From the NCBI GenBank assembly GCA_021083345.1, contig JAJGRE010000001.1:186001-250000 (forward strand): a stretch of 64,000 bases of DNA. The letters run 5' to 3'. This document shows positions 9,752-26,970 of the stretch, one piece after another; positions within the stretch are counted from its first letter, which is position 1; the number at the start of each line of letters is the position of its first letter. Source of the stretch: Calditrichales bacterium MX18-03 (GTDB lineage Bacteria > Bacillota > Clostridia > Lutisporales > Lutisporaceae). The translations under genes were made by a program, and so were the position numbers. The notes under the pieces were generated by a model. The model saw nothing but the letters and a program-made list of their open reading frames with translations. It did no database searches and was not told where the DNA came from.

Positions 9752-9795
9752 AGAAGCATTAATAAACGCTATTAGGAAATCTTATTAATGCTTCT
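9752..9795 (+). terminator. Perfect 14-bp hairpin after the PLP enzyme gene
   Basis: AGAAGCATTAATAA (9752-9765) is perfectly complementary to TTATTAATGCTTCT (9782-9795), with a 16-base loop. It is followed by ATTGTATTGTTATTT, a weak T-tract. Likely terminator between the PLP enzyme gene and the glutamine synthetase gene. Confidence 0.6.
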
Positions 9796-9904
9796 ATTGT
9801 ATTGTTATTTACAATCGATTTTGCAAGTGGTATAATCAGACAGTAAATTCAATGCATGATTTATAATTATACATTTTAATATATTATTATAAGAGGTGAT
9901 GGAG

Positions 9905-11836: not shown

Positions 11837-11841
11837 TAAAG

Positions 11842-11877
11842 AAAGCGCTTCACGTAACGTGAAGCGCTTTTTTTATC
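11842..11877. terminator. Bidirectional terminator between GS gene and lexA
   Basis: AAAGCGCTTCACG (11842-11854) pairs perfectly with CGTGAAGCGCTTT (11858-11870) around TAA, followed by a T-run. On the minus strand the symmetric A/T flank lets it also serve the converging lexA, whose stop codon overlaps the T-run. Confidence 0.9.
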
Positions 11878-12493: not shown

Positions 12494-12571
12494 ATACACT
12501 CCATTTTCCCTGTCTATCAGAATAAAGGATAAACCCATGCAGCCTGATATACGGTATTTTCCATATAAGCT

Positions 12572-12609
12572 ATTATAACACATCCAGTAAAGAATTCAAA
12601 CATATGTTC
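12572..12609 (-). promoter_or_regulatory. lexA promoter with LexA box
   Basis: On the minus strand TTGAAT (plus 12594-12599) and TATAAT (plus 12572-12577) are 16 bases apart. A LexA box GAACATATGTTT (plus 12598-12609; one mismatch to GAAC-N4-GTTC) overlaps the -35, consistent with autorepression. Confidence 0.75.
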
Positions 12610-12734
12610 GTAATATTTGACGATAGGACTGGCTTTTTTGCAGAAAATGCTTTGTTAATAGGGGTCTTAAGCCAAACCTGCACATCACTTCCCAGAAATT
12701 GCTGGGTGCTTATCCATTTTTTTATAAAATAAGC

Positions 12735-12782
12735 TTGACACCGTACATATGTTCGTATAGAATAATAGTAGAACATACGTTC
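12735..12782 (+). promoter_or_regulatory. SOS promoter of the yneA-like gene with two LexA boxes
   Basis: TTGACA (12735-12740), a 17-base spacer and TAGAAT (12758-12763) form a near-consensus promoter. One LexA box, GTACATATGTTC (12743-12754, one mismatch), lies inside the spacer. A perfect box GAACATACGTTC (12771-12782) lies at the transcription start. Tight repression by LexA with induction on DNA damage is inferred. Confidence 0.85.
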
Positions 12783-12801
12783 GTTTGGAGGTGCAAGTAC
12801 C

Positions 12802-13098
12802 ATGAAGAAACACTATCAGATAAAAAATCGATTCCGGTTTTTCATTTCGCTCTGTGTCCTGATGACCGTCCTATTTGCATTATTTTTTACTTCCGTTGTC
12901 AGTGCCGGAAGCAGTGACCAACTGACCATGGTCTCACGGTACGTAGAAGAGGGGGATACCCTTTGGAAGCTTTCCAGACAATATAACAACGGAAGCATGG
13001 ATATACGGGACTATATTCAGACCGTCATGGAGGTCAACCAGCTCCAGTCGGCCAACATCAAGTCAGGAGACTTACTGTATTTTCCGCAGTACAATTAA
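12802..13098 (+). CDS. YneA-like SOS cell-division inhibitor, LysM domain
   Basis: A 98-residue protein with a basic N terminus, one membrane segment or signal anchor (about residues 14-33, FFISLCVLMTVLFALFF) and an extracellular LysM domain (YVEEGDTLWKLSRQY ... SGDLLYFPQ). Size, topology and position divergent from lexA match Bacillus YneA, which delays septation during the SOS response and is rapidly degraded. It has its own LexA-controlled promoter. Start ATG behind GGAGGTG. The name YneA is by architecture and synteny, since LysM proteins diverge quickly. No clear terminator is visible in the 110 bp after it. Confidence 0.85.
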   Translation: MKKHYQIKNRFRFFISLCVLMTVLFALFFTSVVSAGSSDQLTMVSRYVEEGDTLWKLSRQYNNGSMDIRDYIQTVMEVNQLQSANIKSGDLLYFPQYN

Positions 13099-13207
13099 TG
13101 CTCGACCGGTATGTGCGTAAAAAACAGGCTGTCTGCCCGACGCTGCCTTTGCAGGCTTATGAGCATTCAACCTGGTTTCTTATATCCTTCTTATAATCTC
13201 ATGTAGT

Positions 13208-14398
13208 TTAGCGTATGACGATATCGGTCAATTCTTTGTTTGCTGCCAGCAAACCGATATTCCGGCTTACAATAGGCATTTTTTCCAATAGCGTTATGAC
13301 AGGCTGATATGAGCTTCCGATGACAACGGTTTTCTGCAGCTCTAAGATTTCTTTCTTATCCTCCTTGACGCTTTCATAGCGGATCAGATTCAGTTCAAAG
13401 CCGTTATGATTGGTTATCAATTCGCAAAAAGCCTTAGATGTCACTTTGCCCTTATGCAATCCCACAAATATAATTTTGTTTTCCTCTAATCCATAAAAAT
13501 AAAAGGGAAGGCTGTTATCCTCAGCTTTATCCGAATCATCCGACAAGTAGTCTTTCAAGATTATTTCATCCAAATACATCCCTGCAGCCGGTTCATCGGA
13601 TACGATGCTTGATGCTAACTGCAGCAGTTTTTCAACATTTCTATAAAACCACTTTTCCTTATCGATTTTCTTGTTATAGACCATGACTTTCGGGACGACG
13701 GTATATTTCCTGTCTTTATAGATGATCACCACTGAGAAGCCATCAAATCGAATGCCTTGCATTTGCGACAGCTCCACATCGTCCGGCTCATACTCGTCCA
13801 TCAATAACGCATCCATAATGATAGATCCATCATAGTTGGAAAATTCAGCTCTGCAATCATTCATCTCCCTTATGAACAGCTTTTTCTTGAGGTTTTCATC
13901 CTGAACCAGCTCCGGCAATGCCGCTTCCTTTTTACCGCCTTTGCCGGCAATGAATGAGTTCATTTTGTTGTTGCCGTGCTTGCCTTCCACCACATCCACA
14001 TCACTATTCAGCAGGATAGTTGGGTATTTATTGATATAGCGCTCTATATGCTCAGGCTTGATTTTGGCAATCTTGTCATAAAGAGCAGTTTCCTTATTAT
14101 CAACCAGCTTCTTGAAGATCCGGTCCCATTGAATGACCATTTTTTCGTTTTTGTTGATAAAGGGGATCCCATCGATGGTATTGATGACTTCTCTGATCAG
14201 CTCTTTAATTTTATTTTTCTCAAAATCCTCGTTTATCCTGGCAATGATTTGATATATAATAAAGACAACATATAGGAGTGTCGTAATCAGCCATGCGGTG
14301 GTATAGTCCATACCAAACAGGTTAAACAGTATATATTCAACAAGCATGGTCATGATGTAAATCAGTAGTGCAAATGTGTTGGTAGCAATGCTGTACAT
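13208..14398 (-). CDS. Unknown membrane-anchored protein, two N-terminal TM helices
   Basis: I do not recognise this 396-residue protein. Two hydrophobic segments at the N terminus (about residues 8-27 and 36-52) form a hairpin. They are followed by a charged helical linker (NEDFEKNKIKELIREV) and a roughly 300-residue soluble, probably cytoplasmic, domain rich in Lys/Asp/Glu with no catalytic motif I can name. The ribosome binding site (AAAGG) is 12 bases before the ATG and weak. It is monocistronic, convergent with the yneA-like gene and divergent from the Cys-rich protein. Base composition is slightly more AT-rich than the repair genes. Confidence 0.7.
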   Translation of the reverse strand: MYSIATNTFALLIYIMTMLVEYILFNLFGMDYTTAWLITTLLYVVFIIYQIIARINEDFEKNKIKELIREVINTIDGIPFINKNEKMVIQWDRIFKKLVDNKETALYDKIAKIKPEHIERYINKYPTILLNSDVDVVEGKHGNNKMNSFIAGKGGKKEAALPELVQDENLKKKLFIREMNDCRAEFSNYDGSIIMDALLMDEYEPDDVELSQMQGIRFDGFSVVIIYKDRKYTVVPKVMVYNKKIDKEKWFYRNVEKLLQLASSIVSDEPAAGMYLDEIILKDYLSDDSDKAEDNSLPFYFYGLEENKIIFVGLHKGKVTSKAFCELITNHNGFELNLIRYESVKEDKKEILELQKTVVIGSSYQPVITLLEKMPIVSRNIGLLAANKELTDIVIR

Positions 14399-14516
14399 TA
14401 TATCACAATCCTTTCATCTGATGGTTCAACATTGTTATACTCCTATTATAAGCGTTATGCCCCACATTGTCTATTTCGGCAAAATATGCGTGAGCATGAG
14501 ATAAGGGAGGAACACC

Positions 14517-14807
14517 ATGAATATCAAAGAATGTGTCCTGGAAGACCGTAAGTGCACCGACTGCGGAGAATGCAATATCTGCGACCTTGATCCCCAAAAG
14601 GTCTGTGACAATTGCTGCGCATGCATCGACGGCACATCAGACTACCGCAGTGTGGAAATTGATGATGTACTGGATGATGATGAGAGCCTGATCCTGGATA
14701 CAGAGGACCTGGATAACTGGAAGTACGATGAAGATTATACTGTCGAATACAGTGACGAGGAAGCCCAGTCCGAAGACCTGTTGCGAAAAAAGCATCATCG
14801 CAATTAA
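14517..14807 (+). CDS. Small acidic protein with N-terminal cysteine cluster
   Basis: Unknown 96-residue protein. Nine cysteines fall within the first 40 residues (CTDCGECNICDLDP, then VCDNCCACI), mostly spaced CxxC, followed by a very acidic tail (DDVLDDDES..., EDLDNWKYDEDY) and a basic end (RKKHHRN). The Cys spacing suggests zinc or iron-sulfur binding; no transport signal or membrane segment is seen, so it is probably cytoplasmic. The start ATG is behind AAGGGAGG. It converges with the tracts behind the recombinase gene. Function unknown; a metal store, redox or regulatory adaptor role is speculation. Confidence 0.75.
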   Translation: MNIKECVLEDRKCTDCGECNICDLDPQKVCDNCCACIDGTSDYRSVEIDDVLDDDESLILDTEDLDNWKYDEDYTVEYSDEEAQSEDLLRKKHHRN

Positions 14808-14823
14808 CATAAATTTTTTTATG

Positions 14824-15792
14824 TTAATCTGCCTCCGGCTTTTGAGGGGTCTCATTGGATAAGGGGTTGGATTTCACAGCCTGCCGAAGGATATCTTCAT
14901 CCAGATGGGTGTAAATCTGTGTGGTTGATATGTTCTCATGACCCAAAATCTGCTGCAGGGACCGTATATCCACTTTTCCATATTTGTACATCAGTGTCGC
15001 GGCAGTGTGCCGCAGCTTGTGAGTAGAATAAATATCGGTATCCAGCTCGGAGATGCCGATATATTTTTTTACCAAATACTGAATGGTTCTCTTGCTAATG
15101 CGCTGCTTGCGCTCACTTAGGAAGAGGGCTTGCTTATCCTTGACCCCGTCGGCAGGGCGTACCCTTAGGTAGCGTTGGATTGCGTCGATGCAGGCCTGGT
15201 TCAGGTAGACCGTACGCTCTTTATTGCCTTTTCCGATAACCGTCAGAATATCGCCGGAGATCCTGTTGATGTCGATGCCCACCAGTTCCGAGAGTCGCAA
15301 ACCGCAGTTCAGGAACAGCATGATGATGGCATAATCCCGTTCCCTATATTCGCCTTCTATAGAAGCAATCAGCTGCCGGCTTTCCTCCAAGGTCAGGTAA
15401 GCCGGATGGCGGGAATTCAGCTTTGGCGTTTCCAGACCTATAGCTGGGTTCTCTTCGATCATCTTCATTTTGTGGAGGTACTTGAAAAAAGAGCGCAAGC
15501 AAGCAACCTTTCGCGCCCTGGCGCTGTTTTTATTCTCCCGCTGATTGGCGACGAAGGAGAGGAAGGCATAGAAGTCGGCCAAGCTGATATTTTGCATATA
15601 ATAAATATCAATGTCTGTTATAGGAATATTTTCCAGCTCCATATCAGATGAAACGATGTTGCGTCTGATTTTCAGGAACTTGAAGAACAGAGACAAGTCA
15701 TAGCCGTAAGCAACAATGGTGTTTTTTGATTTTCCGCGGATAGTCTCCATATAGGAAAGGAAGTCAATTGCGATAGTGGGTAGATTGTTCAC
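14824..15792 (-). CDS. Tyrosine recombinase (XerC/XerD type)
   Basis: A 322-residue integrase with the N-terminal SAM-like core-binding domain (about 1-105) and the C-terminal catalytic domain. The active-site set is complete: Arg in CGLRLSELVG, Lys in GKGNKERTV, HxxR in THKLRHTAA, and the final His and Tyr in LGHENISTTQIYTHLD. GTG start behind AAAGGGG. XerCD enzymes resolve chromosome dimers at dif; this one could do that or act on a dedicated site. A 28-bp perfect palindrome lies about 35 bases upstream of its start (15828-15855). No integrated element or second recombinase is visible nearby. Confidence 0.9.
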   Translation of the reverse strand: MNNLPTIAIDFLSYMETIRGKSKNTIVAYGYDLSLFFKFLKIRRNIVSSDMELENIPITDIDIYYMQNISLADFYAFLSFVANQRENKNSARARKVACLRSFFKYLHKMKMIEENPAIGLETPKLNSRHPAYLTLEESRQLIASIEGEYRERDYAIIMLFLNCGLRLSELVGIDINRISGDILTVIGKGNKERTVYLNQACIDAIQRYLRVRPADGVKDKQALFLSERKQRISKRTIQYLVKKYIGISELDTDIYSTHKLRHTAATLMYKYGKVDIRSLQQILGHENISTTQIYTHLDEDILRQAVKSNPLSNETPQKPEAD

Positions 15793-16498: not shown

Positions 16499-16933
16499 TC
16501 AGCGTTGATTATAGTTATTCTGGTAGTCATTTACTTTTACCGGTATTTTCTTCTTCCTTGTCGTATCCCCATAATCAAAGTCATCATCACATATCCCTTC
16601 CCACTCCGCTTCTGAATTCTCCTCTTCAACCCGGCATATTTTCACGTCATTAACCCATACTTTAATGACATACTTTACCCCAGGGATCAGTGGACCGAAT
16701 ATAAACTGTCCGCATTCGTCTGTGAATGCGTGTGTTATGGGTGTCAAGATGCAATGATCGCCATGATCCTTTGACTTAAAGAGTTTTACGACTGCGTCCC
16801 TTACCAGTCTTCCTTTCTCGTCTTTTACGACGCCATGTATCACACTTCTTGGCTCTTCAGCAATTTTTATGACAGCATCAATCTGCTCGTTCTCTTTTGG
16901 AATAAAAGTATACTTGGAGATATTTGTTCCCAT
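16499..16933 (-). CDS. CPR-like (carboxypeptidase regulatory-like) small protein, paralog 1
   Basis: A 144-residue protein whose central part (about 30-105) is a beta-sandwich of the carboxypeptidase regulatory-like/Cna-B type: SVIHGVVKDEKGRLV, DAVVKLF, then HAFTDECGQFIFGPL and YVIKVWVND. The rest is an acidic, Asp/Asn-rich tail. No signal peptide or membrane segment. It shares these motifs with the genes at 18233-18613 and 19320-19790, so three paralogs occur within 3.3 kb. Start ATG 16933 is behind GAGGAGG. A sigma-K-like promoter lies upstream (16974-17002), suggesting expression in the mother cell during sporulation. A structural spore-surface role is inferred, not shown. Confidence 0.75.
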   Translation of the reverse strand: MGTNISKYTFIPKENEQIDAVIKIAEEPRSVIHGVVKDEKGRLVRDAVVKLFKSKDHGDHCILTPITHAFTDECGQFIFGPLIPGVKYVIKVWVNDVKICRVEEENSEAEWEGICDDDFDYGDTTRKKKIPVKVNDYQNNYNQR

Positions 16934-16973
16934 GTTGAGCCTCCTCAATAGATTGATTTAGATTATCCCATAT

Positions 16974-17002
16974 TATTGTATGTGCCAAAACTTTAAGTCG
17001 TG
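16974..17002 (-). promoter_or_regulatory. Sigma-K-like promoter of CPR-like paralog 1
   Basis: On the minus strand CACG is followed by exactly 16 bases and CATACAATA, matching the sigma-K pattern mACm-N16/17-CATAnnnTA. The -10 also resembles sigma-E (CATACAMT). It is about 40 bases upstream of the start codon. The same CG-containing -35 and N16 spacing recurs at 18727-18755. Confidence 0.6.
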
Positions 17003-17029
17003 ATGTACTGCTTCCTGTTGAAAAAATAG

Positions 17030-17059
17030 TAAATTTAACGCGTCACCTTACATAAAATA
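17030..17059 (+). promoter_or_regulatory. Possible sporulation (sigma-E-like) promoter of the first SPOCS gene
   Basis: CATAAAATA at 17051-17059 fits the -10 of mother-cell sigma factors. A TAAATTT 14 bases upstream is a poor -35 of sigma-E type. It lies 38 bases before the start codon. Weak evidence. Confidence 0.3.
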
Positions 17060-17096
17060 GTAGTGATACGCCAACAGATTGCCAGGAGGATCTATA

Positions 17097-17576
17097 ATGT
17101 ATAGCAAAGTAAAGAACCTTGTGGAATATATCGGGCTAGCCGATGAGCTTCCTATGCTGGATAATCCGGCTAGTTTCAAGCAGTTCTGCTTGCATGAAAC
17201 GACATGTCTGCCGGAATCAAAGCCGAGCATACTTCAACTTGTCAAAGTCGTTTCAGATATTGCCATATTGGATACCCGGGTAGTAAGGACACCAAAGGCA
17301 GTATCCCTAGAAGGCCAGAAGCTTACCGGCTTCAAACTGATGCTGGAGGGTCTTTTAAAGCAGAAAATTGAATATGTCGGTGATACACCTGCGCAGGAAG
17401 TCCATGCAGTACATTGCAACATCCCATTCAGCACATTTATCATTCTGCCGGAAAATTTCAAACCAAATACTGCTGTTAAAGCAGCAGGGTACCTTGAAGA
17501 TATTTCATCCTGTGTGTTCGAGAAAAGGATTATTATTCAAAATGCAATCCTTTTGGCAGTTGCAGACCTTTATTAA
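17097..17576 (+). CDS. SPOCS (DUF3794) domain protein 1
   Basis: A 159-residue protein made of a single SPOCS/DUF3794 domain, the domain found in SipL- and SpoVID/SafA-type spore morphogenetic proteins. Typical features are AVSLEGQKLTG, then IEYVGDTPAQEVHAVH and the signature NIPFSTFIILP. Unlike SipL it has no LysM domain. Start ATG 17097 is chosen for the CAGGAGG seven bases before it. The next SPOCS gene follows 16 bases after the stop, so the pair is an operon. It diverges from CPR-like paralog 1. A role in spore coat or surface assembly is inferred from the domain family. Confidence 0.8.
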   Translation: MYSKVKNLVEYIGLADELPMLDNPASFKQFCLHETTCLPESKPSILQLVKVVSDIAILDTRVVRTPKAVSLEGQKLTGFKLMLEGLLKQKIEYVGDTPAQEVHAVHCNIPFSTFIILPENFKPNTAVKAAGYLEDISSCVFEKRIIIQNAILLAVADLY

Positions 17577-17592
17577 TCGTTGGAGGTGCCCT

Positions 17593-18126
17593 ATGCATAA
17601 GCCGGGAGATAATGTCATTGAAAGCATCGGTATCGTCAGGCCCGAGGAGCTGCCGAAGCATCCGATCTGGTTTACCGACTTTGACACTTACGATACTTTG
17701 CAGCTGCCTCAGGAAAAGCCGCCGATAAAAGAATTATTGTCAATTGCCGTTGAGCCTGAAATCCGATCGACAACGATAACCCCCACTACTGAATCGGTCT
17801 CCTTTGAAGGGCAGATGCTGGAGTCCAACAATCTGATACTGGAAACCGTCATAAAGCTTAGAATAAAATATCTGACCGATACGTCAGCTCAAAGCATCCA
17901 TATTGCCTGCTTTGACAGCATTATCAGAAGCATCTGCATTGTCCTCCCGGCACAGCATATAGATCGGATACTTGAGAATTCTTACGATATGTCCCAATTG
18001 CACGACGAGGGCAAAATCATAGTAAGATCCTATATAGAAGATATTTATGGAGCTATTATCAATAGTCGCACCCTATTTGTCAGCACAGCCTTATTTATTG
18101 ATGCGACACTGCAAAGGCTCCACTGA
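17593..18126 (+). CDS. SPOCS (DUF3794) domain protein 2
   Basis: A 177-residue relative of the preceding protein: VSFEGQMLESNNL, LRIKYLTDTSAQSIHIA and a degenerate version of the PFxTFIxLP signature (DSIIRSICIVLP). It lacks LysM, signal peptide and membrane segments. The ATG at 17593 has GGAGGTG upstream; the longer open frame to 17368 overlaps the previous gene and is not used. Second gene of the two-gene SPOCS operon, ended by a strong hairpin. The sequence drift from protein 1 suggests the two have separate partners, possibly different CPR-like proteins. Confidence 0.75.
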   Translation: MHKPGDNVIESIGIVRPEELPKHPIWFTDFDTYDTLQLPQEKPPIKELLSIAVEPEIRSTTITPTTESVSFEGQMLESNNLILETVIKLRIKYLTDTSAQSIHIACFDSIIRSICIVLPAQHIDRILENSYDMSQLHDEGKIIVRSYIEDIYGAIINSRTLFVSTALFIDATLQRLH

Positions 18127-18180
18127 ACTTCTGTCCTCGCTTATGCCTGTCTCCCCGAAGGGTACTATGGCTTCTTAATA

Positions 18181-18203
18181 GACTCCTGTACAATACAGGA
18201 GTC
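18181..18203. terminator. Bidirectional hairpin between SPOCS 2 and CPR-like paralog 2
   Basis: GACTCCTGTA (18181-18190) and TACAGGAGTC (18194-18203) are perfectly paired around CAA. Flanks are AT-rich but without a long T-run. It lies between convergent genes. The CAATACAGGAGTC part also occurs in the terminator after trkH. Confidence 0.65.
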
Positions 18204-18232
18204 TATTAACATTGCCTTAAAATTTCCAGCGA

Positions 18233-18613
18233 TTAATACTCACTGTCGTCACAATCGTCATGGGGTCTTACTTTTTTGCCGGAAGGTACGCAGTCGTCCT
18301 TTTTTTCGCAAACTTTTCTTTCCGGCTTGTAGTAGAAAACCTTTATCAGGAAATCCACACACGATGGAACACCGAAAAGAAACTGTCCGCATTCATCAGT
18401 AAAAGCAAAAGTGATAGGAGTCACATCGCAAGGGTCGTTGCAGTTTTCCTTCTTGAACAGCTTAACCAATGCGTTCTTTACCGGTGTACCATCAGGAAAT
18501 CTGACGACGCCATGAATCGCAGCTCTTTTCTCAGGCACCAAGGTGAGATTGAGGTCCTGTTCTTCGTTGGGTTTCAGGTTTACCTCGACACTTTTTAACT
18601 TCCAACCCATCAT
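18233..18613 (-). CDS. CPR-like small protein, paralog 2
   Basis: A 126-residue paralog of the proteins at 16499 and 19320: AAIHGVVRFPDGTPV, NALVKLFKKENCNDPC, FAFTDECGQFLFGVP and a short Cys/Asp/Lys-rich tail (CEKKDDCVPSG). Four cysteines in the tail and insert could form disulfides or cross-links. The N terminus begins MMGWKLK, like the MG starts of the other two. Start behind AAAGGAGAG. It is single and convergent with the SPOCS pair. Structural, possibly spore-coat, function is inferred from the neighbourhood only. Confidence 0.72.
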   Translation of the reverse strand: MMGWKLKSVEVNLKPNEEQDLNLTLVPEKRAAIHGVVRFPDGTPVKNALVKLFKKENCNDPCDVTPITFAFTDECGQFLFGVPSCVDFLIKVFYYKPERKVCEKKDDCVPSGKKVRPHDDCDDSEY

Positions 18614-18726
18614 TTATACTCTCCTTTTCTAAATTTAAATTGGGTTTTTAGGCCTAGTACACTATATTAACTGCAACAGAGGAGTGTTACATTTTAGGGA
18701 CATGTTTTTAAACCCTCCTATCCTAT

Positions 18727-18755
18727 AACGCTGTCACTTGAAATTTCATATAATA
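18727..18755 (+). promoter_or_regulatory. Sigma-K-like promoter of the 159-aa gene
   Basis: AACG, exactly 16 bases, then CATATAATA fits the sigma-K consensus. It is 31 bases before the start codon and has the same ACG-N16-CATAnAATA layout as the promoter at 16974-17002. Confidence 0.6.
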
Positions 18756-18785
18756 TACCAGAGTAAATAATACGGAGATGTTGAT

Positions 18786-19265
18786 ATGAGCGATTATTTG
18801 AAAGAGCTTTGCCTGCTGCATAAAATCATACTGGTATATACCGATAATGACTATACCATTTTATCTGCAGGAGCAAGGAACAGAACCCCTGTCATAAAAG
18901 CCTTTGTCGGTTTTGCAGATTGCCCTGAGGGCATTGCCGATGCAATATTGAGATACTACACCAAAAATGACCAAAAAGCCCTGAGGCAAATACAGAACTT
19001 TGCCGAAGAATATCTGTTTTTTTTGGGATATGATATTGAACCGCCGGACGACTTGTTTCTGAACCTGACCGGTGATATCAGCAGAATCGAAATTACAAAC
19101 AAAGATGAGAAGAAAAAAAAGACCCGGGATTATGTTGAGATGGATATCCTGTCCATCTCAGAAAAAGATATGGCGAGTAAGTGTAAAAATGTAAGATCTG
19201 AAAAATTGATTCATGTCTCGGAAGATGATGTAGCAGAGCTAAATATTATTATTAAAGACCGCTAG
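18786..19265 (+). CDS. Unknown 159-aa protein of the SPOCS/CPR cluster
   Basis: Not firmly recognised. The first half (ILVYTDNDYTILSAGARNR, then FADCPEGIADAILRYYTKNDQKALRQIQNFAEEYL) resembles the segment that precedes the catalytic helix in SprT-like zinc metalloproteases, but no HExxH is present and the second half is lysine-rich with a repeated acidic pattern (VEMDILSISEKDM, HVSEDDVAEL). It may be a non-catalytic remnant or an adaptor. Start ATG has GGAG upstream, and a sigma-K-like promoter precedes it. Convergent with CPR-like paralog 3 through a shared terminator. The SprT resemblance is my reading and is weak. Confidence 0.6.
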   Translation: MSDYLKELCLLHKIILVYTDNDYTILSAGARNRTPVIKAFVGFADCPEGIADAILRYYTKNDQKALRQIQNFAEEYLFFLGYDIEPPDDLFLNLTGDISRIEITNKDEKKKKTRDYVEMDILSISEKDMASKCKNVRSEKLIHVSEDDVAELNIIIKDR

Positions 19266-19279
19266 TATTATATCAAATA

Positions 19280-19320
19280 AAAGCAAAGAGGCCCTGCACA
19301 CCGCAGCGCCTCTTTGCTTT
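19280..19320. terminator. Strong bidirectional terminator
   Basis: AAAGCAAAGAGGC (19280-19292) is perfectly complementary to GCCTCTTTGCTTT (19308-19320), loop of 15, with A/T flanks on both sides. It serves the 159-aa gene and the convergent CPR-like paralog 3, whose stop codon overlaps it. Confidence 0.85.
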
Positions 19321-19790
19321 TATATCTCGTTTTCCTCTTCTTCCGCACCGTTACTGTCATAAAACTCCTGGTAAGCAGCTTTGCTCCCTTGAACTGAATC
19401 ATCGTGATATGCTCTTATGCCAGGATTCCTGCAGGGTTTGCAATGGTCATCGTATGGTTTGCCGAAATCATCCGGGCGAATGATCAATTCGCGTATTTTA
19501 ATATTGTTTATCCATACTTTGATGACATATTGCTTGCATGCGGTCAGGGGTCCGAAAAGAAACTGCCCGCATTCATCCGTGAATGCATGCGTTATGGGTT
19601 TTAATTTGCAATCCTCCTGTGGATTCAGTACTTCAAACAACTTAACGACTGCATCCTGTACATTCCTATTCTTATGGTCCTTTACAACGCCATGAATCAC
19701 ACTTCGACTTTCTTCCGGAACCCGGATAATTGTTTCTATTTGTTCATTTTCTCCAGGCGTAAAACTAAATTTGACAAGCCGTGAACCCAT
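19320..19790 (-). CDS. CPR-like small protein, paralog 3
   Basis: A 156-residue protein closest to paralog 1: shared SVIHGVVKD, DAVVKLFE, PITHAFTDECGQFLFGPL and YVIKVWINNIKI. N terminus MGSRLVKFSFTPGENEQIE parallels the ISKYTFIPKENEQID of paralog 1. The C-terminal 50 residues are acidic and contain an HCKPCRNPG segment. No signal peptide. Start behind AGGAGGA. It diverges from SPOCS protein 3 over a 190-bp intergenic. The near-invariant FTDECGQF block in all three suggests a conserved binding surface. Confidence 0.75.
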   Translation of the reverse strand: MGSRLVKFSFTPGENEQIETIIRVPEESRSVIHGVVKDHKNRNVQDAVVKLFEVLNPQEDCKLKPITHAFTDECGQFLFGPLTACKQYVIKVWINNIKIRELIIRPDDFGKPYDDHCKPCRNPGIRAYHDDSVQGSKAAYQEFYDSNGAEEEENEI

Positions 19791-19982
19791 GTTTATCCTC
19801 CTAATTCAATACTATACTAATATATATTGAGGGAGGAAATAATTATTCAAATAAAAGTCGGCTAATGCTTTTCCTTTTCCGTTATATATACAATCGACGT
19901 GGAATACTTATAGTTTAGGAAATAAGTAAAAAAGTCATGATCATTAGCCATTGGGAAATCATCTTAATGATGGAGTGTAAAT

Positions 19983-20498
19983 ATGGATGAAAACACATTT
20001 GCTAATGCTTTGCTCCATAAAAAAAACAGGCTGTGGTTCTCAGAAATGCATTGCGCCGAAAGAATTGATCTTCCTAAGCATTTTCCCGACATCCGTCATG
20101 TTGTTTCTACTTTTTCAATCATTGAAATACTCTCGATAAAAACCATCAAGACAATCTGCAGTCAATCTTTCGAAGGACAATGCCTCACTGGGAAAGCAGC
20201 CGGTATTGAAATGCTTGTAAAGGGCAAAACGCTCTACCAATCGTCACAAGACTCAAAAACCTTACACATCGTTGAAAGCATTTTTTATCAATCAGCGTCT
20301 GTAACAATTCCTTGTAAAATAGAGGGAACTGACACTGAGGTATTATTAGCGAGAGGGCGCCTGAGGTGTGAAACTCTAATCAATTGTGACACAGCGAGGG
20401 TCATGAATTCTCGCTGCATTACAAAGAATCTATCTTTAAGCTTATACATAAAACTGTTGTCAGCTGCAGACCGATGTTACGATAGCTACATATTGTAG
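19983..20498 (+). CDS. Divergent SPOCS-like (DUF3794-like) protein 3
   Basis: A 171-residue protein with a weaker SPOCS resemblance: SQSFEGQCLTGKAAG matches the SLEGQKLTG block of protein 1, followed by a strand pattern similar in spacing, but the PFxTFIxLP signature is lost (reads SASVTIPCKI). Single gene, with GGAGTG before the ATG. Its last 13 bases overlap the end of the convergent glycosyltransferase gene. Cys-containing C terminus (CETLINCDTARVMNSRC). I treat it as a diverged family member because of the FEGQ block and its position. Confidence 0.6.
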   Translation: MDENTFANALLHKKNRLWFSEMHCAERIDLPKHFPDIRHVVSTFSIIEILSIKTIKTICSQSFEGQCLTGKAAGIEMLVKGKTLYQSSQDSKTLHIVESIFYQSASVTIPCKIEGTDTEVLLARGRLRCETLINCDTARVMNSRCITKNLSLSLYIKLLSAADRCYDSYIL

Positions 20499-21619
20499 AC
20501 AATTGATTCATAAAGGGATACCACCTTTTTTATCGAGCCTTCCCAAGTCTTATCTGTTGCATTATTACCATATTTTTTTTCGGCAATTCTTCTATAGTCT
20601 GCATTACAGATTATTCCCAACAAGACATCTTTGATCAGGTTATGATCTCTTGGATCTGCTAGAATTGCTGCTGTACCTGCTACTTCCTCAAACACAGGTA
20701 GTTTGCTGCAGATGACAGGTGTGTTGCATGCAATGGCCTCCACTGTAGTAGACGGGTAACCTTCATAATCGGATAGATTTAACATGCAAAGGGCTCTATT
20801 GTAGAAAGCCGGCATATCCTCATAATCGACAATTCCTGGAAACAACACGGCATCCTCTATTTGCAGCCGGCTGGCATATTGCCTAAGTGATTGATAATAA
20901 CCTTCCCTCTTGCCATCCACCTTCCCTGCAATAACCAGCTTCAAATCATCCCGGTACTCCATAATCGCCTTAAATATTTTAATTGCTTTATCAAGGTTTT
21001 TTCTCGGATGTATGCTCCCTGCAAAAAGCACAAAATCTTCTTTGATTCCATATTTCTGTTCCAAAACTCTGGTATGGTCATGCGCCGGCAAAGGTCTGAA
21101 GATGTGTGAGCATCCGGGATGGATTACGGCAATCTTCTTATCAGGTATTCGGTAATTTTTAATAATTTCCATTTTGATAAAATCTGAGACAGCTATTATT
21201 GCATCGGCTTTCCTGATCGCATTTGGAAAGACCGACTCAAACTTGTTGCAGTATTTCACATCTGTATCGCATCTATTTGACACCGGGTAAAGGTCATGTA
21301 CCGTAATGATGAATTTGCATGCTTTTGTGAAAGGAATACTTAACCCGTTGTTGGGTGAATGAAACAAGTCTACTCTATTGGCTGCCAGATAGTCATCCAG
21401 TTTTGAGAAAATATTCTCTTTCCTGTTGATACCGATATTTGAATACGTCAGATTCTTTTTTTTCTGCCAGCCCTGTACATATGCATTTCCTTCCCAAATC
21501 AAATGATACTGAGGCTGTCCATAGCTCTCAAGCAATTGATTCAGAAGCTCAAAGGAATACGTATAGAGGCCTGTCCCTTTCAGTCTGCTGACCGCCAGTC
21601 CATCAAAGCAAATTTTCAT
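20486..21619 (-). CDS. GT4-family glycosyltransferase
   Basis: A 377-residue GT-B retaining glycosyltransferase. The N-terminal acceptor domain has the glycine-rich SRLKGTGLYTY. The C-terminal nucleotide-sugar domain begins at LFAGSIHPRKNLDKA and includes the catalytic EGYPSTTVEAIACNTPV (E-x7-E motif). No membrane segment, so cytoplasmic. Start ATG 21619 is set by GTGAGGTG six bases upstream; earlier in-frame ATGs lack one. It follows SPOCS protein 4 by ten bases and is co-transcribed with it. Glycosylation of spore-surface proteins or a polysaccharide is inferred from context; sugar and acceptor are unknown. Confidence 0.88.
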   Translation of the reverse strand: MKICFDGLAVSRLKGTGLYTYSFELLNQLLESYGQPQYHLIWEGNAYVQGWQKKKNLTYSNIGINRKENIFSKLDDYLAANRVDLFHSPNNGLSIPFTKACKFIITVHDLYPVSNRCDTDVKYCNKFESVFPNAIRKADAIIAVSDFIKMEIIKNYRIPDKKIAVIHPGCSHIFRPLPAHDHTRVLEQKYGIKEDFVLFAGSIHPRKNLDKAIKIFKAIMEYRDDLKLVIAGKVDGKREGYYQSLRQYASRLQIEDAVLFPGIVDYEDMPAFYNRALCMLNLSDYEGYPSTTVEAIACNTPVICSKLPVFEEVAGTAAILADPRDHNLIKDVLLGIICNADYRRIAEKKYGNNATDKTWEGSIKKVVSLYESIVYNM

Positions 21620-21629
21620 ATCTTTCACC

Positions 21630-22271
21630 TCACAGGTACTCCGCATCAATATCAATTAACTGCTGTCTGCTTTCAACATTATCGTTCATGATGACCTCTT
21701 TTTTTCGATCAAAGGTGGAATTCCCGGAACCGATAGCTTTCGTATTCATAATAGCTCTTTCATCAGATAGGCATATTTCTGTTGACATATCGGAGAAGGC
21801 TTCGTCATTATTCTTTTCTCTTACACCCTCAGAAGCAAATTCAACAGATACCATATATACGATATGACTATAAACACTTCTGCTATCAAGCCGATAAAAA
21901 AAGGCATCCAAAACATATATGCTGGTACCCTCCGCCCGAATGCCTTTCGGTAAATTAAAAAATGTATTATAGGGAAGCTCCAGGTCAATAACGCTGGCTG
22001 AATTGGTATCGTTATCAGCAGAATATAATATTTTCAACTGTTTTATACCATCAAGAATGACAGTGCGCCCCAAAGGAGTAGCGATACTTCTTTCCTTTCT
22101 AGCCTCAATCTTAATCAATATTTGATATATACTTTTAATGAGGGGGTAGGATTCCGGAATGTGTATGACATCATTCTCAGAATACTGTATTGTCTCTCCA
22201 TAAAAGCTTGACGGAAGCTCAGCCTCTTCCGCTATTCCGGATATGCTGATAAAATTTCTAACGATATCCAT
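21630..22271 (-). CDS. SPOCS (DUF3794) domain protein 4
   Basis: A 213-residue protein with a SPOCS domain at about residues 40-165: TVILDGIKQLKILYSADNDT, then DLELPYNTFFNLPKG, equivalent to the PFxTFIxLP signature. A 45-residue Glu/Asp/Ser-rich tail follows (SDERAIMNTKAIGSGNST region). The start at 22271 is set by GAGGGTGG six bases upstream, giving MDIVRNFISI. First gene of a pair with the glycosyltransferase. It lies 128 bases after hypE on the same strand with no clear terminator between, so some read-through from the hydrogenase operon is possible. An inverted repeat (ATTGCTT-N5-AAGCAAT) precedes the Shine-Dalgarno. Confidence 0.72.
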   Translation of the reverse strand: MDIVRNFISISGIAEEAELPSSFYGETIQYSENDVIHIPESYPLIKSIYQILIKIEARKERSIATPLGRTVILDGIKQLKILYSADNDTNSASVIDLELPYNTFFNLPKGIRAEGTSIYVLDAFFYRLDSRSVYSHIVYMVSVEFASEGVREKNNDEAFSDMSTEICLSDERAIMNTKAIGSGNSTFDRKKEVIMNDNVESRQQLIDIDAEYL

Positions 22272-22399: not shown

Positions 22400-23401
22400 T
22401 CAGCATATTCTCGGCAGCATCGGACCCTCCAGCGGATTCAGTATTCTTTTCCCTCCAATATTTGTTTGAAGATAAACAACCTCTTCTCTTCTACCGGTAA
22501 AACTGCCGATTATGCAGGCACCCATTCCATTCTCACAGCTTTTGATGCGTTGCAATACAGCCGAAGAAATATCCGGATCAACAACCAGTATCACCCTGCC
22601 TTCACAAGCAAGATACAAAGGATCCAGCCCCAAAAGCCGGCATATCCCCTCAACCTCTCTTCGTATTGGTATGGCATGTTCACAAATATTTGATTCCATG
22701 CCTTCTCTTTCGGAAATCTCATTTAAAGCCGTAGCCAACCCGCCTCTGGTAGGGTCTTTCATCAGCTTGATTCCAGAATAATACGGCTTAAGCTGAGTAA
22801 TGATGTTGTATACAGATCCGCAATCACTGCTGAAAGGACCCTTCACGGGGATCTTATATCTTTCCAGTGCAATGGCTGCACCATGCTCTGCAATGCTGCC
22901 CGTAACGATGATATGGTCTCCAGGTTTAACTTCTTTATGGCAGTATGCGCAGTCTACAATACCTATGCCGGAAGTATTGATAAAAATACCGTCCACTGCC
23001 CCCTTTTCCACTACTTTTGTATCTCCGGTAATGATGCAGGCCCCGGTTTCCTGGCATGCCACACGCATAGACCGGACAATCCGTTCCAGCTCATCCAGCT
23101 TGAAACCCTCCTCTATGATAAAACCGGCACTCACGTATAAGGGCTTAGCGCCGGACACAGCCAAATCGTTGGTTGTCCCGTATACAGCCAGCTTTCCTAT
23201 ATCACCACCTGGAAAGAAAAGCGGCTTTATAACGAAGGAGTCTGTGGTAAAGGCCAGCCGCCCTTCGGCTGTATGAAAGACACCCGCATCCAGTCCCTGC
23301 AGCAGCATTTCATTGCCAAAGTATTTGTAGAATAATTCCCGGATCAGCAGCGCGGTGTGTTTTCCGCCGTCCCCATGATAGAGCCTGATCAATTCTTCCA
23401 T
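22400..23401 (-). CDS. hypE: Hydrogenase maturation factor HypE
   Basis: Dehydrates the carbamoyl group received from HypF on its C-terminal cysteine to a thiocyanate, supplying CN ligands for the NiFe centre. The AIR-synthase-like fold shows HYGDGGKHTALL near the N terminus, FTTDSFVIKPLFFPGGDIGKL at about 50, GDTKVVEKG and KDPTRGGLATALNE. The protein ends exactly in the canonical PRIC, with Cys as last residue. Length 333. Its start overlaps the hypD stop by one base. Last gene of the nine-gene hydrogenase operon. Confidence 0.97.
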   Translation of the reverse strand: MEELIRLYHGDGGKHTALLIRELFYKYFGNEMLLQGLDAGVFHTAEGRLAFTTDSFVIKPLFFPGGDIGKLAVYGTTNDLAVSGAKPLYVSAGFIIEEGFKLDELERIVRSMRVACQETGACIITGDTKVVEKGAVDGIFINTSGIGIVDCAYCHKEVKPGDHIIVTGSIAEHGAAIALERYKIPVKGPFSSDCGSVYNIITQLKPYYSGIKLMKDPTRGGLATALNEISEREGMESNICEHAIPIRREVEGICRLLGLDPLYLACEGRVILVVDPDISSAVLQRIKSCENGMGACIIGSFTGRREEVVYLQTNIGGKRILNPLEGPMLPRIC

Positions 23402-24480
23402 TATTTCATTGGCACTCTCCCGTTATTGAAATAGATGGCGCAAGAACCTTCGCTTGAAACCATGCATGGGCCCAGAGGGTTCTGCGGCCTGCACACCACC
23501 TCGAACATCCTGCATTCATAAGGCAGTATGTTCCCGATAATAACGTCCCCACAGCTGCAGCCTGACTTTGGCAGCGGATTTGACAATCGGATGCAGAATC
23601 TGTTCAAAGCATCAAAGTCTTTGTATCTGCTGCTCAGCACATAGGCTGAATCCTTGATCCGGCCGATACCACGCCAGCTTGCTTCATCAACTTCAAATAC
23701 CTCTTGCAGCAGCTTATTGGCCGTTGCATTTCCCTCATCACCGACACAAGTTTTATACAGATTTCTCAGGCTGGATCTTTCTTGACCGTTGCATTGCCGG
23801 GTCAGCATATAGATTCCACAGGCCATATCCATCGCTTCAAATCCGCATATGACAGCCGGGATAGCATATTCCTGCGCAATAAAGCTGAAATACCTGGCCC
23901 CCATGACAGCTGCCACATGGCCAGGACAAATAATGCCATGAAGCCTGTTCCTTTTTGCAGCCAGGATATGATGCAGCACAGGAGGCATCCGCTTCAACGC
24001 CATCAGGAAGCTCAGGTTGCCTATGCCGTTTTCTTTTGCCAGCTTTACTGCCAATGCGATGCTTGGAGCCGTTGTTTCGAATCCCACCGCCAAAAACACC
24101 AGCTGCCTGCCGGACAATTTCTTTGACAGAGCCAGGCAATCCAACGGCGAATATGCGATAGATACGTTGCCCCGCTTGCCGAACTGATCCGACAGGCTTT
24201 CATGGGTACCCCTGACCCGAAGCATATCCCCAAAGGTGGCCAGATGGATGTCCTTTTCCTTTAGTAGCGCAATCGCTGCATCAATGCATGCTTCGTCCGT
24301 GACACATACCGGACAGCCGGGTCCTGAAAGCAGCCTTATACTTGGCGGCAGCATCTCTCTGATGCCCGATTGAAAGAATGCTCGGGTATGCGTTCCACAT
24401 ACTTCCATCAAATTAAGTTCACTTGCTGTTTTTTTACGGATATCTTCCATCAAGCAAGTGATGAGCCTTTTCGTATCCAT
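23401..24480 (-). CDS. hypD: Hydrogenase maturation factor HypD
   Basis: Iron-sulfur scaffold on which, with HypC, Fe(CN)2CO is assembled. Motifs: MEVCGTHTRAFFQSG near the N terminus, GPGCPVCVT, AVGFETTAPS, CPGHVAAVMG and GFEAMD. The C-terminal 4Fe-4S cysteines lie in KSGCSCGDVIIG, ECRMF and CRPQNPLGPC. Length 359. I start at ATG 24480 because GAAGG is six bases upstream, directly after the hypC stop; the longer open frame to 24606 runs through hypC in another frame. Confidence 0.96.
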   Translation of the reverse strand: MDTKRLITCLMEDIRKKTASELNLMEVCGTHTRAFFQSGIREMLPPSIRLLSGPGCPVCVTDEACIDAAIALLKEKDIHLATFGDMLRVRGTHESLSDQFGKRGNVSIAYSPLDCLALSKKLSGRQLVFLAVGFETTAPSIALAVKLAKENGIGNLSFLMALKRMPPVLHHILAAKRNRLHGIICPGHVAAVMGARYFSFIAQEYAIPAVICGFEAMDMACGIYMLTRQCNGQERSSLRNLYKTCVGDEGNATANKLLQEVFEVDEASWRGIGRIKDSAYVLSSRYKDFDALNRFCIRLSNPLPKSGCSCGDVIIGNILPYECRMFEVVCRPQNPLGPCMVSSEGSCAIYFNNGRVPMK

Positions 24481-24481
24481 A

Positions 24482-24703
24482 TCAAACCTTCTCATCCAGG
24501 AGTTCAGAGAATACCTCCTGCAAATAAGCCAAATATGCTTCATTGATCTTCTGAATGGCACAACCTGCATGAACCAAGATACAGTCACCAAGCTCCGGCT
24601 TGTCAATCAACAGGATGCTTACGATGCTTTCAACGCCCATGATATCTACCGTAGCCCAAGCTTTATCCATGGCTGTAATTCTTCCCGGTACTGCAAGGCA
24701 CAT
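24482..24703 (-). CDS. hypC: Hydrogenase maturation chaperone HypC
   Basis: A 73-residue chaperone that carries the Fe(CN)2CO unit and delivers it to the large-subunit precursor. It begins with MCLAVPG, whose Cys2 is the essential ligand, and contains the family GDxxLVHAGxA motif as GDCILVHAGCA. Located two bases after hypF and one base before hypD, tightly coupled in the operon. Confidence 0.96.
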   Translation of the reverse strand: MCLAVPGRITAMDKAWATVDIMGVESIVSILLIDKPELGDCILVHAGCAIQKINEAYLAYLQEVFSELLDEKV

Positions 24704-24705
24704 TT

Positions 24706-26970
24706 TTAATCCTCCAAAATACTGTCTGCAATGACCAGCTGCCCAACGGATATGCCGCTGTCATTGATCGGTATCTGCTCATTAAAAAAAACGCTGAAGC
24801 CTGAGTCTTTCAAGCGGCGGTGCAAATCCTCAAGCAAATATCGGTTTTCAAATACGCCGCCGCTTAGCACCACATCATTGACTTTATGAATCTCCCTTAG
24901 TCGAAGAACCATATCGGCAGCAGCCGCTGCAATGGTATTATGAAACTTGGCGGAAATGGCGGAAGCTGGAACCCGACAGTCCAAATCTGCAAGGACACCA
25001 GCAAGGATATCCCGGTAATCCAACTCCCAAGGCTCAGAATTCGTATTGATGCGGTAGCCGTAGCATGACGTGATGCCGGCTTCTGCCATGTCCTCCAGCT
25101 CTATGGCAGCTTGTGCATCGTAGGTGATTCGGTCTCTGACCCCTATCAGTGCCGCGATGCAGTCGAACAGCCGCCCCATGCTGGTGGAAGAATGGCAGTT
25201 GAGCCCCGAAGCCAGGGCATGCAGTACAGCATCCATCTCATACCTTTCGACAGTCTTAATATAGTCCCGCGCTTCTAGACCCAAGGCTCGCAAGTAGCAT
25301 GCAGCTGAGCGCCAGGGCTCTTGCACTACCCGGTCTCCTCCTTGCAGTAATACCTGTCCAAGATGTCCGACGCGTCTGAAACACTTTCTGCTGCCAATAA
25401 AAAACTCCCCTCCCCAGATACTGCCGTCATAGCCCAAGCCAGTGCCATCAAAAATGATGCCGATTACTTCCCCGAAAAGCTTATGCTCTGCCATACAGCT
25501 TACCATATGGGCATGGTGATGCTGCACGGGAATTTTGGGGCCGGTCTGTTTTTCAGCATGCCAAGTTGAAAGGTACTGAGGATGAAGATCATGGACATAT
25601 ATCAGCGGATTAGCCTTCAGCAACGCAGTCTGCTTATCAATGATCTCTTTGAAGCGTTCATATACCGCCATTTCTTTCAGATCCCCTATATATTGGCTCA
25701 TATATGCATACCCGCTCTGTGACAGGCAAACTGAATTCTTTTGCTCAGCTCCCAGGGCCAGAATATCATGGTTAATGCCAAGATCTAGCGCATAGGGGAT
25801 GTATCCTCTGGCTCTCCGGCTTACCTGTTCTCTTCCGGCTGCAAGCTTTACAACCGAGTCGTCAGTGGAGCTGTATATGTCACGGTTATGGAGAAGAAAA
25901 TAGTCCGCTATCCCATCCAAGCCTTGTATGACAGAATCATTCTCACACTGTATGGGATCCCTTGACCTGTTGCCGCTTGTCATCACAAGCATTTCCAGCC
26001 CATCATCGAATAAGAGATGCTGAAGCGGCAAATATGGCAGCATCAAGCCTATGCTTTTCAAGCACGGCGCAATATTTTCTCCCATAATGGCCTTCTCTTT
26101 TTTTTTCAATAACACGATGGGCCTTCTTGGACTACTGAGCAGCTTCAGCTCTTGAGAGGATATCTCGCAATACCTGGCTGCAATCTGGATATTTTTCGTC
26201 ATCACAGCCAAGGGCTTGTGTGGTCTCTTCTTCCTGTTTCTCAGCTTCATCACAGCTTCATCATTCGAAGCGTCACAGCAGAGGTGAAATCCGCCGATTC
26301 CTTTGATTGCTATGATGTTGCCCTTCTTGATCAACTCGATGGTTCTGCCTATCGGGTCAGTACAATTAATCGTGCATCCATGGCTGTGGGCCAGTTCGAG
26401 AGATGGACCACAGTCACTGCAGCAATTGGGCTGTGTATGAAACCTTCTGCTTTCAGGGTTGTTATACTCAGTCTCGCAGCAGCTGCATTGCTGAAAATCC
26501 TTCATTGTAGTATTGCAGCGGTCATATGGAAGTGCTTTGATGATGGAGAAACGCGGACCGCATTCCGTGCAATTTGTAAAGGCATAACGGTACCGTCTTG
26601 AATGTGGATCACGAACCTCGCTCATACATTTTTCGCAAGCGCCGACATCCGGTGAAACCAGCTTCAGCCCCTTAGAGAACGTATCACTTTCCCTGATTTC
26701 AAAGTCCTCATACCCTGCGCTTGCTTGTAACCTTATCTCAACCTTTTTGATGTCGGCCAGTACAGGAGGTCTTGCTGCAACGTCTCTAACAAAGCATTTC
26801 AGCGAGTTCCTTTCTCCCTCTGCGTCAATGATTACCATGGCACCGGCATTGTTTACCCAACCGCAAATGCCGTATTCTTTAGCTTTCTGAAAAATATATG
26901 GCCTATAGCCAACGCCCTGCACAACACCGCATAAACGGATCATATACCTGCTCTTTTCAGTATCATTCAA
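24706..26970 (-). CDS. hypF: Carbamoyltransferase HypF
   Basis: Converts carbamoyl phosphate to a carbamoyl adenylate and passes it to the HypE cysteine. Domains in order: acylphosphatase-like (GVVQGVGYRPYIFQKAKE, residues about 14-95), two zinc-finger units (CEKCMSEVRDP...CTECGPR and CETEYNN...CCSDCGP), YrdC-like (about 205-390, KGIGGFHLCCDA) and the Kae1-like ATPase domain with VQHHHAHMVSCMAEH and SGGVFENRYL. Length 754 is normal. The probable start is TTG 26970, which overlaps the preceding gene by eight bases; ATG 26943 is an alternative with a poor ribosome binding site. Confidence 0.96.
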   Translation of the reverse strand: MNDTEKSRYMIRLCGVVQGVGYRPYIFQKAKEYGICGWVNNAGAMVIIDAEGERNSLKCFVRDVAARPPVLADIKKVEIRLQASAGYEDFEIRESDTFSKGLKLVSPDVGACEKCMSEVRDPHSRRYRYAFTNCTECGPRFSIIKALPYDRCNTTMKDFQQCSCCETEYNNPESRRFHTQPNCCSDCGPSLELAHSHGCTINCTDPIGRTIELIKKGNIIAIKGIGGFHLCCDASNDEAVMKLRNRKKRPHKPLAVMTKNIQIAARYCEISSQELKLLSSPRRPIVLLKKKEKAIMGENIAPCLKSIGLMLPYLPLQHLLFDDGLEMLVMTSGNRSRDPIQCENDSVIQGLDGIADYFLLHNRDIYSSTDDSVVKLAAGREQVSRRARGYIPYALDLGINHDILALGAEQKNSVCLSQSGYAYMSQYIGDLKEMAVYERFKEIIDKQTALLKANPLIYVHDLHPQYLSTWHAEKQTGPKIPVQHHHAHMVSCMAEHKLFGEVIGIIFDGTGLGYDGSIWGGEFFIGSRKCFRRVGHLGQVLLQGGDRVVQEPWRSAACYLRALGLEARDYIKTVERYEMDAVLHALASGLNCHSSTSMGRLFDCIAALIGVRDRITYDAQAAIELEDMAEAGITSCYGYRINTNSEPWELDYRDILAGVLADLDCRVPASAISAKFHNTIAAAAADMVLRLREIHKVNDVVLSGGVFENRYLLEDLHRRLKDSGFSVFFNEQIPINDSGISVGQLVIADSILED

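What the first reader, a model, noticed from the sequence alone, without database searches (positions are those of the whole stretch)
16499..22271. Interleaved SPOCS and CPR-like paralog cluster with a glycosyltransferase: candidate new spore-surface system
Seen: three paralogous CPR-like proteins (shared FTDECGQF block) alternate in orientation with four DUF3794/SPOCS or SPOCS-like proteins lacking LysM, one unknown protein and a GT4 enzyme, all in 5.8 kb. Two promoters have the identical ACG-N16-CATAnAATA layout expected for sigma-K. Known: SPOCS domains occur in spore envelope morphogenesis proteins (SipL, SpoVID, SafA). Inference: small SPOCS proteins act as adaptors or assembly factors for the CPR-like beta-sandwich proteins, which are glycosylated and built into the coat, exosporium or appendages. 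I know of no described system with this composition.
Basis: partly seen in the sequence, partly recalled or inferred. Interest (0 to 1): 0.78.

Follow-up and report, generated by a model that had tools for sequence, protein, structure and literature searches.

The report
Spore-surface assembly cluster with SPOCS proteins
A compact, conserved gene cluster in a spore-forming anaerobe encodes small adaptor-like proteins, small beta-sandwich proteins and a sugar-transfer enzyme; it most likely builds part of the spore's outer surface, and it shares its core pair of small adaptors with the gene cluster that makes the ribbon appendages of Clostridium taeniosporum spores.

Summary
In 16.5-22.3 kb there are three CPR-like proteins, four SPOCS proteins, one unknown protein and a GT4 enzyme. 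All four SPOCS proteins are recovered by a profile built without them (E 1e-58 to 5e-13). Two sigma-K-like promoters match exactly (0 of 100 shuffles reach two). In loci from other Clostridia these four families are the only widely shared neighbours. Each window SPOCS protein falls in its own conserved subfamily; SPOCS-d sits directly upstream of the GT4 and ends in a motif, LIDIDAEYL, found in all 11 members from GT4-bearing clusters and in neither of two others. CPR occurs only in genomes with SpoIVA (15 of 15; background 208 of 291).

Two Clostridiaceae loci match the published C. taeniosporum ribbon-appendage cluster in gene order, sizes and identities. HYPO2 and HYPO3 of that cluster are therefore almost certainly SPOCS proteins; HYPO1 may be CPR-like. 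The window cluster is a reduced cousin: its genome has no collagen or DUF11 match.

Best reading: a mother-cell module for spore-surface assembly and glycosylation, a new variant of a known kind. Glycosylation of CPR proteins and appendage formation in this organism are not shown.

The parts
16499..16933 (-). CPR1: type I CPR-like beta-sandwich protein, 144 aa, acidic tail, conserved Cys61 and Cys74
16974..17001 (-). sigma-K-like promoter ACGACTTAAAGTTTTGGCACATACAATA upstream of CPR1
17097..17576 (+). SPOCS-a, 159 aa, PF12673; same subfamily as the HYPO2-like proteins of L053/L058
17593..18126 (+). SPOCS-b, 177 aa; same subfamily (96/99) as the HYPO3-like proteins of L053/L058
18233..18613 (-). 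CPR2: type II CPR-like protein, 126 aa; clade (98/86) of CPR genes that mostly sit beside the unknown family
18728..18755 (+). sigma-K-like promoter ACGCTGTCACTTGAAATTTCATATAATA upstream of the unknown gene
18786..19265 (+). conserved protein of unknown family, 159 aa, partner of type II CPR; predicted alpha/beta N-terminal domain plus C-terminal strands
19320..19790 (-). CPR3: type I CPR-like protein, 156 aa
19983..20498 (+). SPOCS-c, 171 aa; its relatives continue into a PD40 beta-propeller, which is missing here
20486..21619 (-). GT4 glycosyltransferase, 377 aa, EGYPSTTVE (EX7E) motif present
21630..22268 (-). SPOCS-d, GT4-linked subfamily (100/99), C-terminal motif LIDIDAEYL; an upstream in-frame ATG starts at 22316

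Best explanation
The cluster is a mother-cell-expressed module for building and sugar-modifying part of the spore's outer surface (outer coat, exosporium or appendage base). Inferred steps: a late sporulation sigma factor (sigma-K-like) switches on CPR1 and the unknown gene; the small SPOCS proteins a and b, encoded as a tandem pair, act as non-enzymatic protein-protein adaptors or lattice parts on the forming spore surface, as the SPOCS domain does in SpoVID and SipL; the CPR-like beta-sandwich proteins with acidic, Cys-containing tails are structural subunits laid on that scaffold; SPOCS-d recruits the GT4 enzyme to the same place through its conserved C-terminal LIDIDAEYL motif so that a surface component is glycosylated locally; the unknown protein is an assembly partner of type II CPR. 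The cluster shares the SPOCS-a/SPOCS-b pair with the ribbon-appendage cluster of C. taeniosporum but lacks the fibre proteins (P29, collagen glycoprotein). Shown: gene content, homology, conserved neighbourhood, subfamily structure, SpoIVA association, promoter matches, motif-GT4 association. Inferred: expression, location, contacts and the acceptor of the sugar.
For: Conserved neighbourhood: all-against-all comparison of ORFs in 22 loci finds CPR (21 loci), SPOCS (11), GT4 (10) and the unknown family (8) as the only neighbours shared by more than four loci. In Clostridiaceae, 19 of 29 CPR places in genomes that also have SPOCS lie within 10 kb of a SPOCS place, against about 2% by my rough chance estimate. 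Four separate SPOCS subfamilies are each conserved across several families. Spore link: 15 of 15 CPR-positive genomes have SpoIVA against 208 of 291, P 0.006. Relatives carry DUF11-SPOCS, collagen-like and P29-like genes in the same cluster. L053/L058 reproduce the C. taeniosporum appendage cluster in order, sizes and internal identities. In Clostridium, a CPR gene lies in the CotS coat-kinase/GT4 region. The CsxC and BC_2427 families match members of the SPOCS set (best E 0.0012 and 1.7e-5); CsxC is a C. sporogenes exosporium protein (PMC4942563). The LIDIDAEYL motif is present in 11 of 11 SPOCS-d members from GT4-bearing clusters and 0 of 2 others. No signal peptide or membrane segment is evident in any of the nine proteins by a hydropathy scan, as expected for mother-cell assembly. 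Promoter matches.
Against: No expression, proteomic or interaction data. Promoter enrichment across relatives is only modest (13/94 against 11/191, p 0.02, spacing 16-18; the strict consensus is not enriched). The window genome has no DUF11 or collagen match, so the fibre-forming parts of the known cluster are absent. CPR occurs without SPOCS in many genomes (Alkalithermobacter, some Lachnospiraceae, most Clostridium), so the two are not obligate partners. The CPR fold match is weak (best Foldseek E 0.02). The motif test has only two negatives, one of them at a contig end.
Confidence: 0.65

Rival explanations
1. The cluster makes true spore appendages (fibres or ribbons) in this organism; the CPR proteins are the fibre subunits that replace P29 and the collagen glycoprotein.
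For: Same SPOCS-a/SPOCS-b tandem as the appendage-type clusters; three CPR paralogues and an N-terminal arm that is confidently placed yet assigned no strand in the model, which could pair with a neighbouring subunit; a CPR-type gene occupies the HYPO1 position in L053.
Against: No collagen or DUF11 match in the genome; no Pfam match of the nine proteins to the known ENA domains; a circular-permutation/strand-donation idea for CPR failed its control; appendage-type CPR proteins are a separate, distant branch.
Confidence: 0.15
2. It is a loose cluster of independently acquired spore coat genes (a coat gene island) without a joint assembly function.
For: CPR occurs alone in many genomes; gene order and strand vary; the type II CPR plus unknown pair stands alone in Lachnospiraceae and other loci.
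Against: The same families recur together in Lutisporaceae, Peptostreptococcaceae, Thermohalobacteraceae and Clostridiaceae; the SPOCS-d/GT4 pair with a coupled motif.
Confidence: 0.15
3. The GT4 and SPOCS-d make a surface polysaccharide or sugar coat of the crust type, and the other proteins are its protein anchors.
For: The GT4 is related to the GT4 enzymes beside CotS kinases in Clostridium (GT4 profile E 1e-70 to 1e-85).
Against: No nucleotide-sugar synthesis or polymer export gene found in the cluster; no CotS kinase in it.
Confidence: 0.05

Closest known systems
Clostridium taeniosporum ribbon-appendage gene cluster CRD1-HYPO1-HYPO2-HYPO3-CRD2-P29a-GP85-P29b-CL2 (PMC5749712)
   Same: A tandem of two about 160-aa SPOCS proteins (HYPO2/HYPO3 by size, order and identity; SPOCS-a and SPOCS-b are in the same subfamilies as their counterparts in L053/L058); probably a CPR-like gene (HYPO1 position); sigma-K-like promoters.
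   Different: No DUF11-SPOCS (CRD), no P29, no collagen glycoprotein in the window; extra GT4 with SPOCS-d, extra type I and II CPR genes and the unknown protein; mixed gene orientation. C. taeniosporum DNA itself was not available here.
SipL / SpoVID / CotE (SPOCS morphogenetic proteins)
   Same: SPOCS domain.
   Different: Single small domain, no LysM; the genome has a separate 538-aa SipL-like protein with three SPOCS domains elsewhere.
CsxC and BC_2427 families (NCBIfam; CsxC is an exosporium protein of C. sporogenes, PMC4942563)
   Same: Weak but repeated profile similarity to the SPOCS set (3 of 35 and 9 of 35 members respectively at E up to 0.1).
   Different: The window SPOCS-a scores are far below the curated cut-offs.
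ENA / F-ENA endospore appendages (DUF3992, DUF4183; PMC11952670)
   Same: Small beta-sandwich proteins are used on spore surfaces; DUF11 domains occur in clostridial F-Anchor.
   Different: No DUF3992 or DUF4183 match in any of the nine proteins.
CotS/CotSA coat kinase-glycosyltransferase loci
   Same: GT4 of the same broad family; in Clostridium a CPR gene lies in that region.
   Different: No CotS kinase in the window cluster.

Membership tests
SPOCS domain (PF12673) | profile match over the curated cut-off | tested here: met
   SPOCS-a 33.8 bits against 23.6; b, c and d only by the outside-built profile
SipL / SpoVID | SPOCS plus C-terminal LysM | tested here: not met
   no LysM match in SPOCS-a to d
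C. taeniosporum appendage cluster | tandem HYPO2/HYPO3 small SPOCS pair | tested here: met
   same subfamilies and order as in L053/L058, whose sizes and identities match the published cluster; C. taeniosporum sequence itself not compared
C. taeniosporum appendage cluster | DUF11 proteins CRD1/CRD2 and P29a/b | tested here: not met
   no DUF11 match in the genome
C. taeniosporum appendage cluster | collagen-like glycoprotein GP85/CL2 | tested here: not met
   no collagen match in the genome
C. taeniosporum appendage cluster | forms appendages on spores | not testable with these tools
   needs microscopy
CarboxypepD_reg (PF13620) | match over the curated cut-off | tested here: not met
   16.8-20.4 bits against 32.3; 22 of 27 family members match at E up to 0.01
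CarboxypepD_reg (PF13620) | transthyretin-like beta-sandwich fold | tested here: inconclusive
   model core pLDDT over 90; top PDB matches include intradiol dioxygenases and transthyretin at E 0.02-0.1
CsxC / BC_2427 | NCBIfam cut-off | tested here: not met
   12.8 and 14.4 bits against 135 and 200 for SPOCS-a
ENA / F-ENA | DUF3992 or DUF4183 | tested here: not met
   no such match at E up to 10
GT4 glycosyltransferase | Glycos_transf_1 / Glyco_transf_4 domains and EX7E | tested here: met
   93.3 and 48.6 bits; EGYPSTTVE
CotS/CotSA locus | CotS-family kinase beside the GT4 | tested here: not met
   no kinase-like gene among the nine

The most novel reading that the evidence does not exclude
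A previously undescribed spore-surface machine, widespread in Clostridia, in which tandem small SPOCS proteins form the scaffold, CPR-like beta-sandwich proteins form the outer lattice or fibres, and a dedicated SPOCS protein brings a glycosyltransferase to the spore surface by a C-terminal peptide; clostridial ribbon appendages would be one elaboration of it.
Probability: 0.35. Interest if true: 0.78.

Novelty: new variant of a known kind. Interest (0 to 1): 0.62.

Why it matters
How clostridial spores build their outermost layers and appendages is poorly known, and the appendage cluster of C. taeniosporum was published with its small proteins labelled hypothetical. Recognising those as SPOCS proteins ties appendage assembly to the SpoVID/SipL class of coat morphogenetic proteins and gives a defined gene set (two small SPOCS proteins, CPR, SPOCS-d plus GT4) to delete and image. 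The SPOCS-d tail peptide gives a direct, simple test of how a glycosyltransferase might be brought to the spore surface.

Tried and rejected
Circular permutation or donor-strand reading of the CPR proteins: moving the N-terminal arm to the C-terminus did not raise the PF13620 score consistently beyond scrambled-arm controls (one of five rose, 24.5 against 18.9 bits, but one control scored 30.7), so it was dropped. Sigma-K promoter enrichment across relatives: only modest; the strict published consensus is not enriched. Metallopeptidase-like reading of the unknown protein: top Foldseek matches MATCAP and abylysin at E 0.4-1.2; no HExxH motif in the sequence; kept only as a lead. PDB profile searches with all three families gave nothing useful. 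Direct check of C. taeniosporum: its chromosome (CP017253) was not found in the collections I searched; replaced by L053/L058. Requirement of SPOCS for CPR: refuted by genomes with CPR alone. Restriction to non-spore-formers: refuted, including small genomes of 1.1-2 Mb that have SpoIVA.
Full report
Observation. The three CPR-like proteins are paralogues (53% and 38% identity to CPR1) with the shared FTDECGQF block. SPOCS-a is a clear PF12673 member; b, c and d are below or without Pfam thresholds, but a profile built only from SPOCS-a-type proteins of other genomes recovers them at E 2e-27, 5e-13 and 7e-16, better than the genome's own SipL-like protein (6e-10). The two sigma-K-like promoters are exact and unexpected by chance (0 of 100 shuffles), 40 bp before the CPR1 ATG and 30 bp before the unknown gene.

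Neighbourhood. One scan of the genome collection with the CPR alignment gave 18 loci: Tepidibacter, Alkalithermobacter, Clostridium aestuarii, brassicae and ganghwense, Lutispora saccharofermentans, Thermohalobacteraceae, Herbinix, Anaerocolumna and MAGs. All-against-all comparison of ORFs in these and a few further loci found the CPR, SPOCS, GT4 and unknown families as the only neighbours shared by more than four loci. Relatives add a protein with nine DUF11 repeats and a C-terminal SPOCS domain, SPOCS proteins with a PD40 beta-propeller, and collagen-like proteins. In 208 Clostridiaceae genomes, 65 have CPR and 40 have SPOCS matches; of 29 CPR places in genomes with both, 19 lie within 10 kb of SPOCS. 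Of fourteen genomes behind the loci, nine have SPOCS matches; in eight of them these lie mainly at the CPR locus, and in the ninth (G049) the only match is in a 551-aa open frame.

Subfamilies. A tree of 99 SPOCS domains puts the four window proteins in four groups: SPOCS-a with the HYPO2-like proteins (90/91), SPOCS-b with the HYPO3-like proteins (96/99), SPOCS-c inside a group of SPOCS-propeller proteins (100/100, nested in the larger SPOCS-b group), SPOCS-d in a group of 13 (100/99). Of those 13, ten lie directly upstream of a GT4 gene on the same strand. Eleven end in LIDIDAEYL or a close variant of it, all from clusters that contain the GT4; the two members without a detected GT4 (L059 at a contig end, L060) lack it. 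SPOCS-c stops where its relatives continue into the propeller, so the window copy lacks that domain. A tree of 56 CPR proteins separates type II (CPR2, in a 98/86 group whose members mostly neighbour the unknown family), a Clostridium group in the CotS/GT4 region, a small-genome group, and a distant appendage-type group; CPR1 and CPR3 (type I) fall in the unresolved middle with the other SPOCS-linked CPR genes. Lutispora has type I, type II and appendage-type genes in one cluster.

Spore link. In a class-wide sample of 291 genomes, 15 have CPR and all 15 have SpoIVA, against 208 of 291 overall (P 0.006). The window genome has SpoIVA and a separate SipL-like protein. None of the nine proteins has a signal peptide-like or membrane segment by a simple hydropathy scan, in keeping with assembly from the mother cell.

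Link to a known structure. The C. taeniosporum appendage cluster is CRD1 (564 aa), HYPO1, HYPO2 (158), HYPO3 (160), CRD2 (413), P29a (269), GP85 (collagen-like), P29b (269), CL2; CRD1 and CRD2 are 36.6% identical over 399 aa, P29 matches CRD1 at 22% and CRD2 at 29%, and HYPO2 and HYPO3 are 34% identical over 140 aa (PMC5749712). Locus L053 has, in this order, 556 aa (DUF11 + SPOCS), CPR 161, SPOCS 166, SPOCS 160, DUF11-SPOCS 413, 269, collagen, 268, collagen; its CRD-like pair is 33.4% identical over 398 aa, P29-like against CRD1-like 22-24%, against CRD2-like 22-27%, and its small SPOCS pair 31% over 148 aa. L058 has the same run from the CPR gene to the second P29-like gene. HYPO2/HYPO3 are therefore almost certainly SPOCS proteins. 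HYPO1 as CPR is inferred from position only; the similarity of the L053/L058 CPR proteins to type I/II is weak directly (E 0.005 and 0.001) and rests on intermediates. [quoted passage not shown] I found no paper joining them to SPOCS.

Mechanism. SPOCS domains are contact modules of coat morphogenesis: that of SpoVID binds CotE and SafA (PMC10867305). The small SPOCS pair therefore most likely acts as an adaptor or lattice part. CPR proteins are predicted beta-sandwiches with a confidently placed N-terminal arm and a disordered acidic tail and two cysteines conserved in 21-22 of 27, which fits structural surface subunits. SPOCS-d and GT4 form a unit; the tail motif is my proposed docking peptide. 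None of these contacts was tested.

Limits. No expression or protein data exist here. The window genome has no DUF11 or collagen match, so I do not file the cluster as an appendage cluster. CPR occurs often without SPOCS. The acceptor of the GT4 is unknown.

Noticed in passing
window 12802-13098 (+): Small secreted-looking LysM protein divergent from a LexA repressor gene (11873-12583, -), an arrangement like that of the SOS division inhibitor YneA.
   Followed up: partly
window 13208-14398 (-): 396-aa protein with N-terminal hydrophobic segments and no Pfam or NCBIfam match.
   Followed up: partly
window 22400-29091 (-): NiFe hydrogenase large subunit, maturation protease and hyp-type maturation genes lie directly beside the cluster.
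   Followed up: partly
L062, L063, L064, L066: A CPR subfamily (100/100) in genomes of 1.1-1.7 Mb that still have SpoIVA, lying among housekeeping genes (in L062 and L064 beside what looks like the glutamate racemase gene).
   Followed up: partly
L047-L051, L057: In Clostridium a single CPR gene lies near tsaD-like genes and a CotS-kinase/GT4 coat gene group.
   Followed up: partly
L052 (G245) 2986-15571: An array of small SPOCS genes plus two SPOCS proteins of about 1630 aa in a genome without a CPR match.
   Followed up: no
L020 797-2344: A protein with DUF4489 matches in three stretches lies next to an appendage-type CPR gene in Tepidibacter.
   Followed up: no
L019 3973-5112, L025 7998-9131, L029 8091-9224: These GT4 relatives lack the EX7E pattern by a simple text search; they may use a variant or be non-catalytic.
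   Followed up: no
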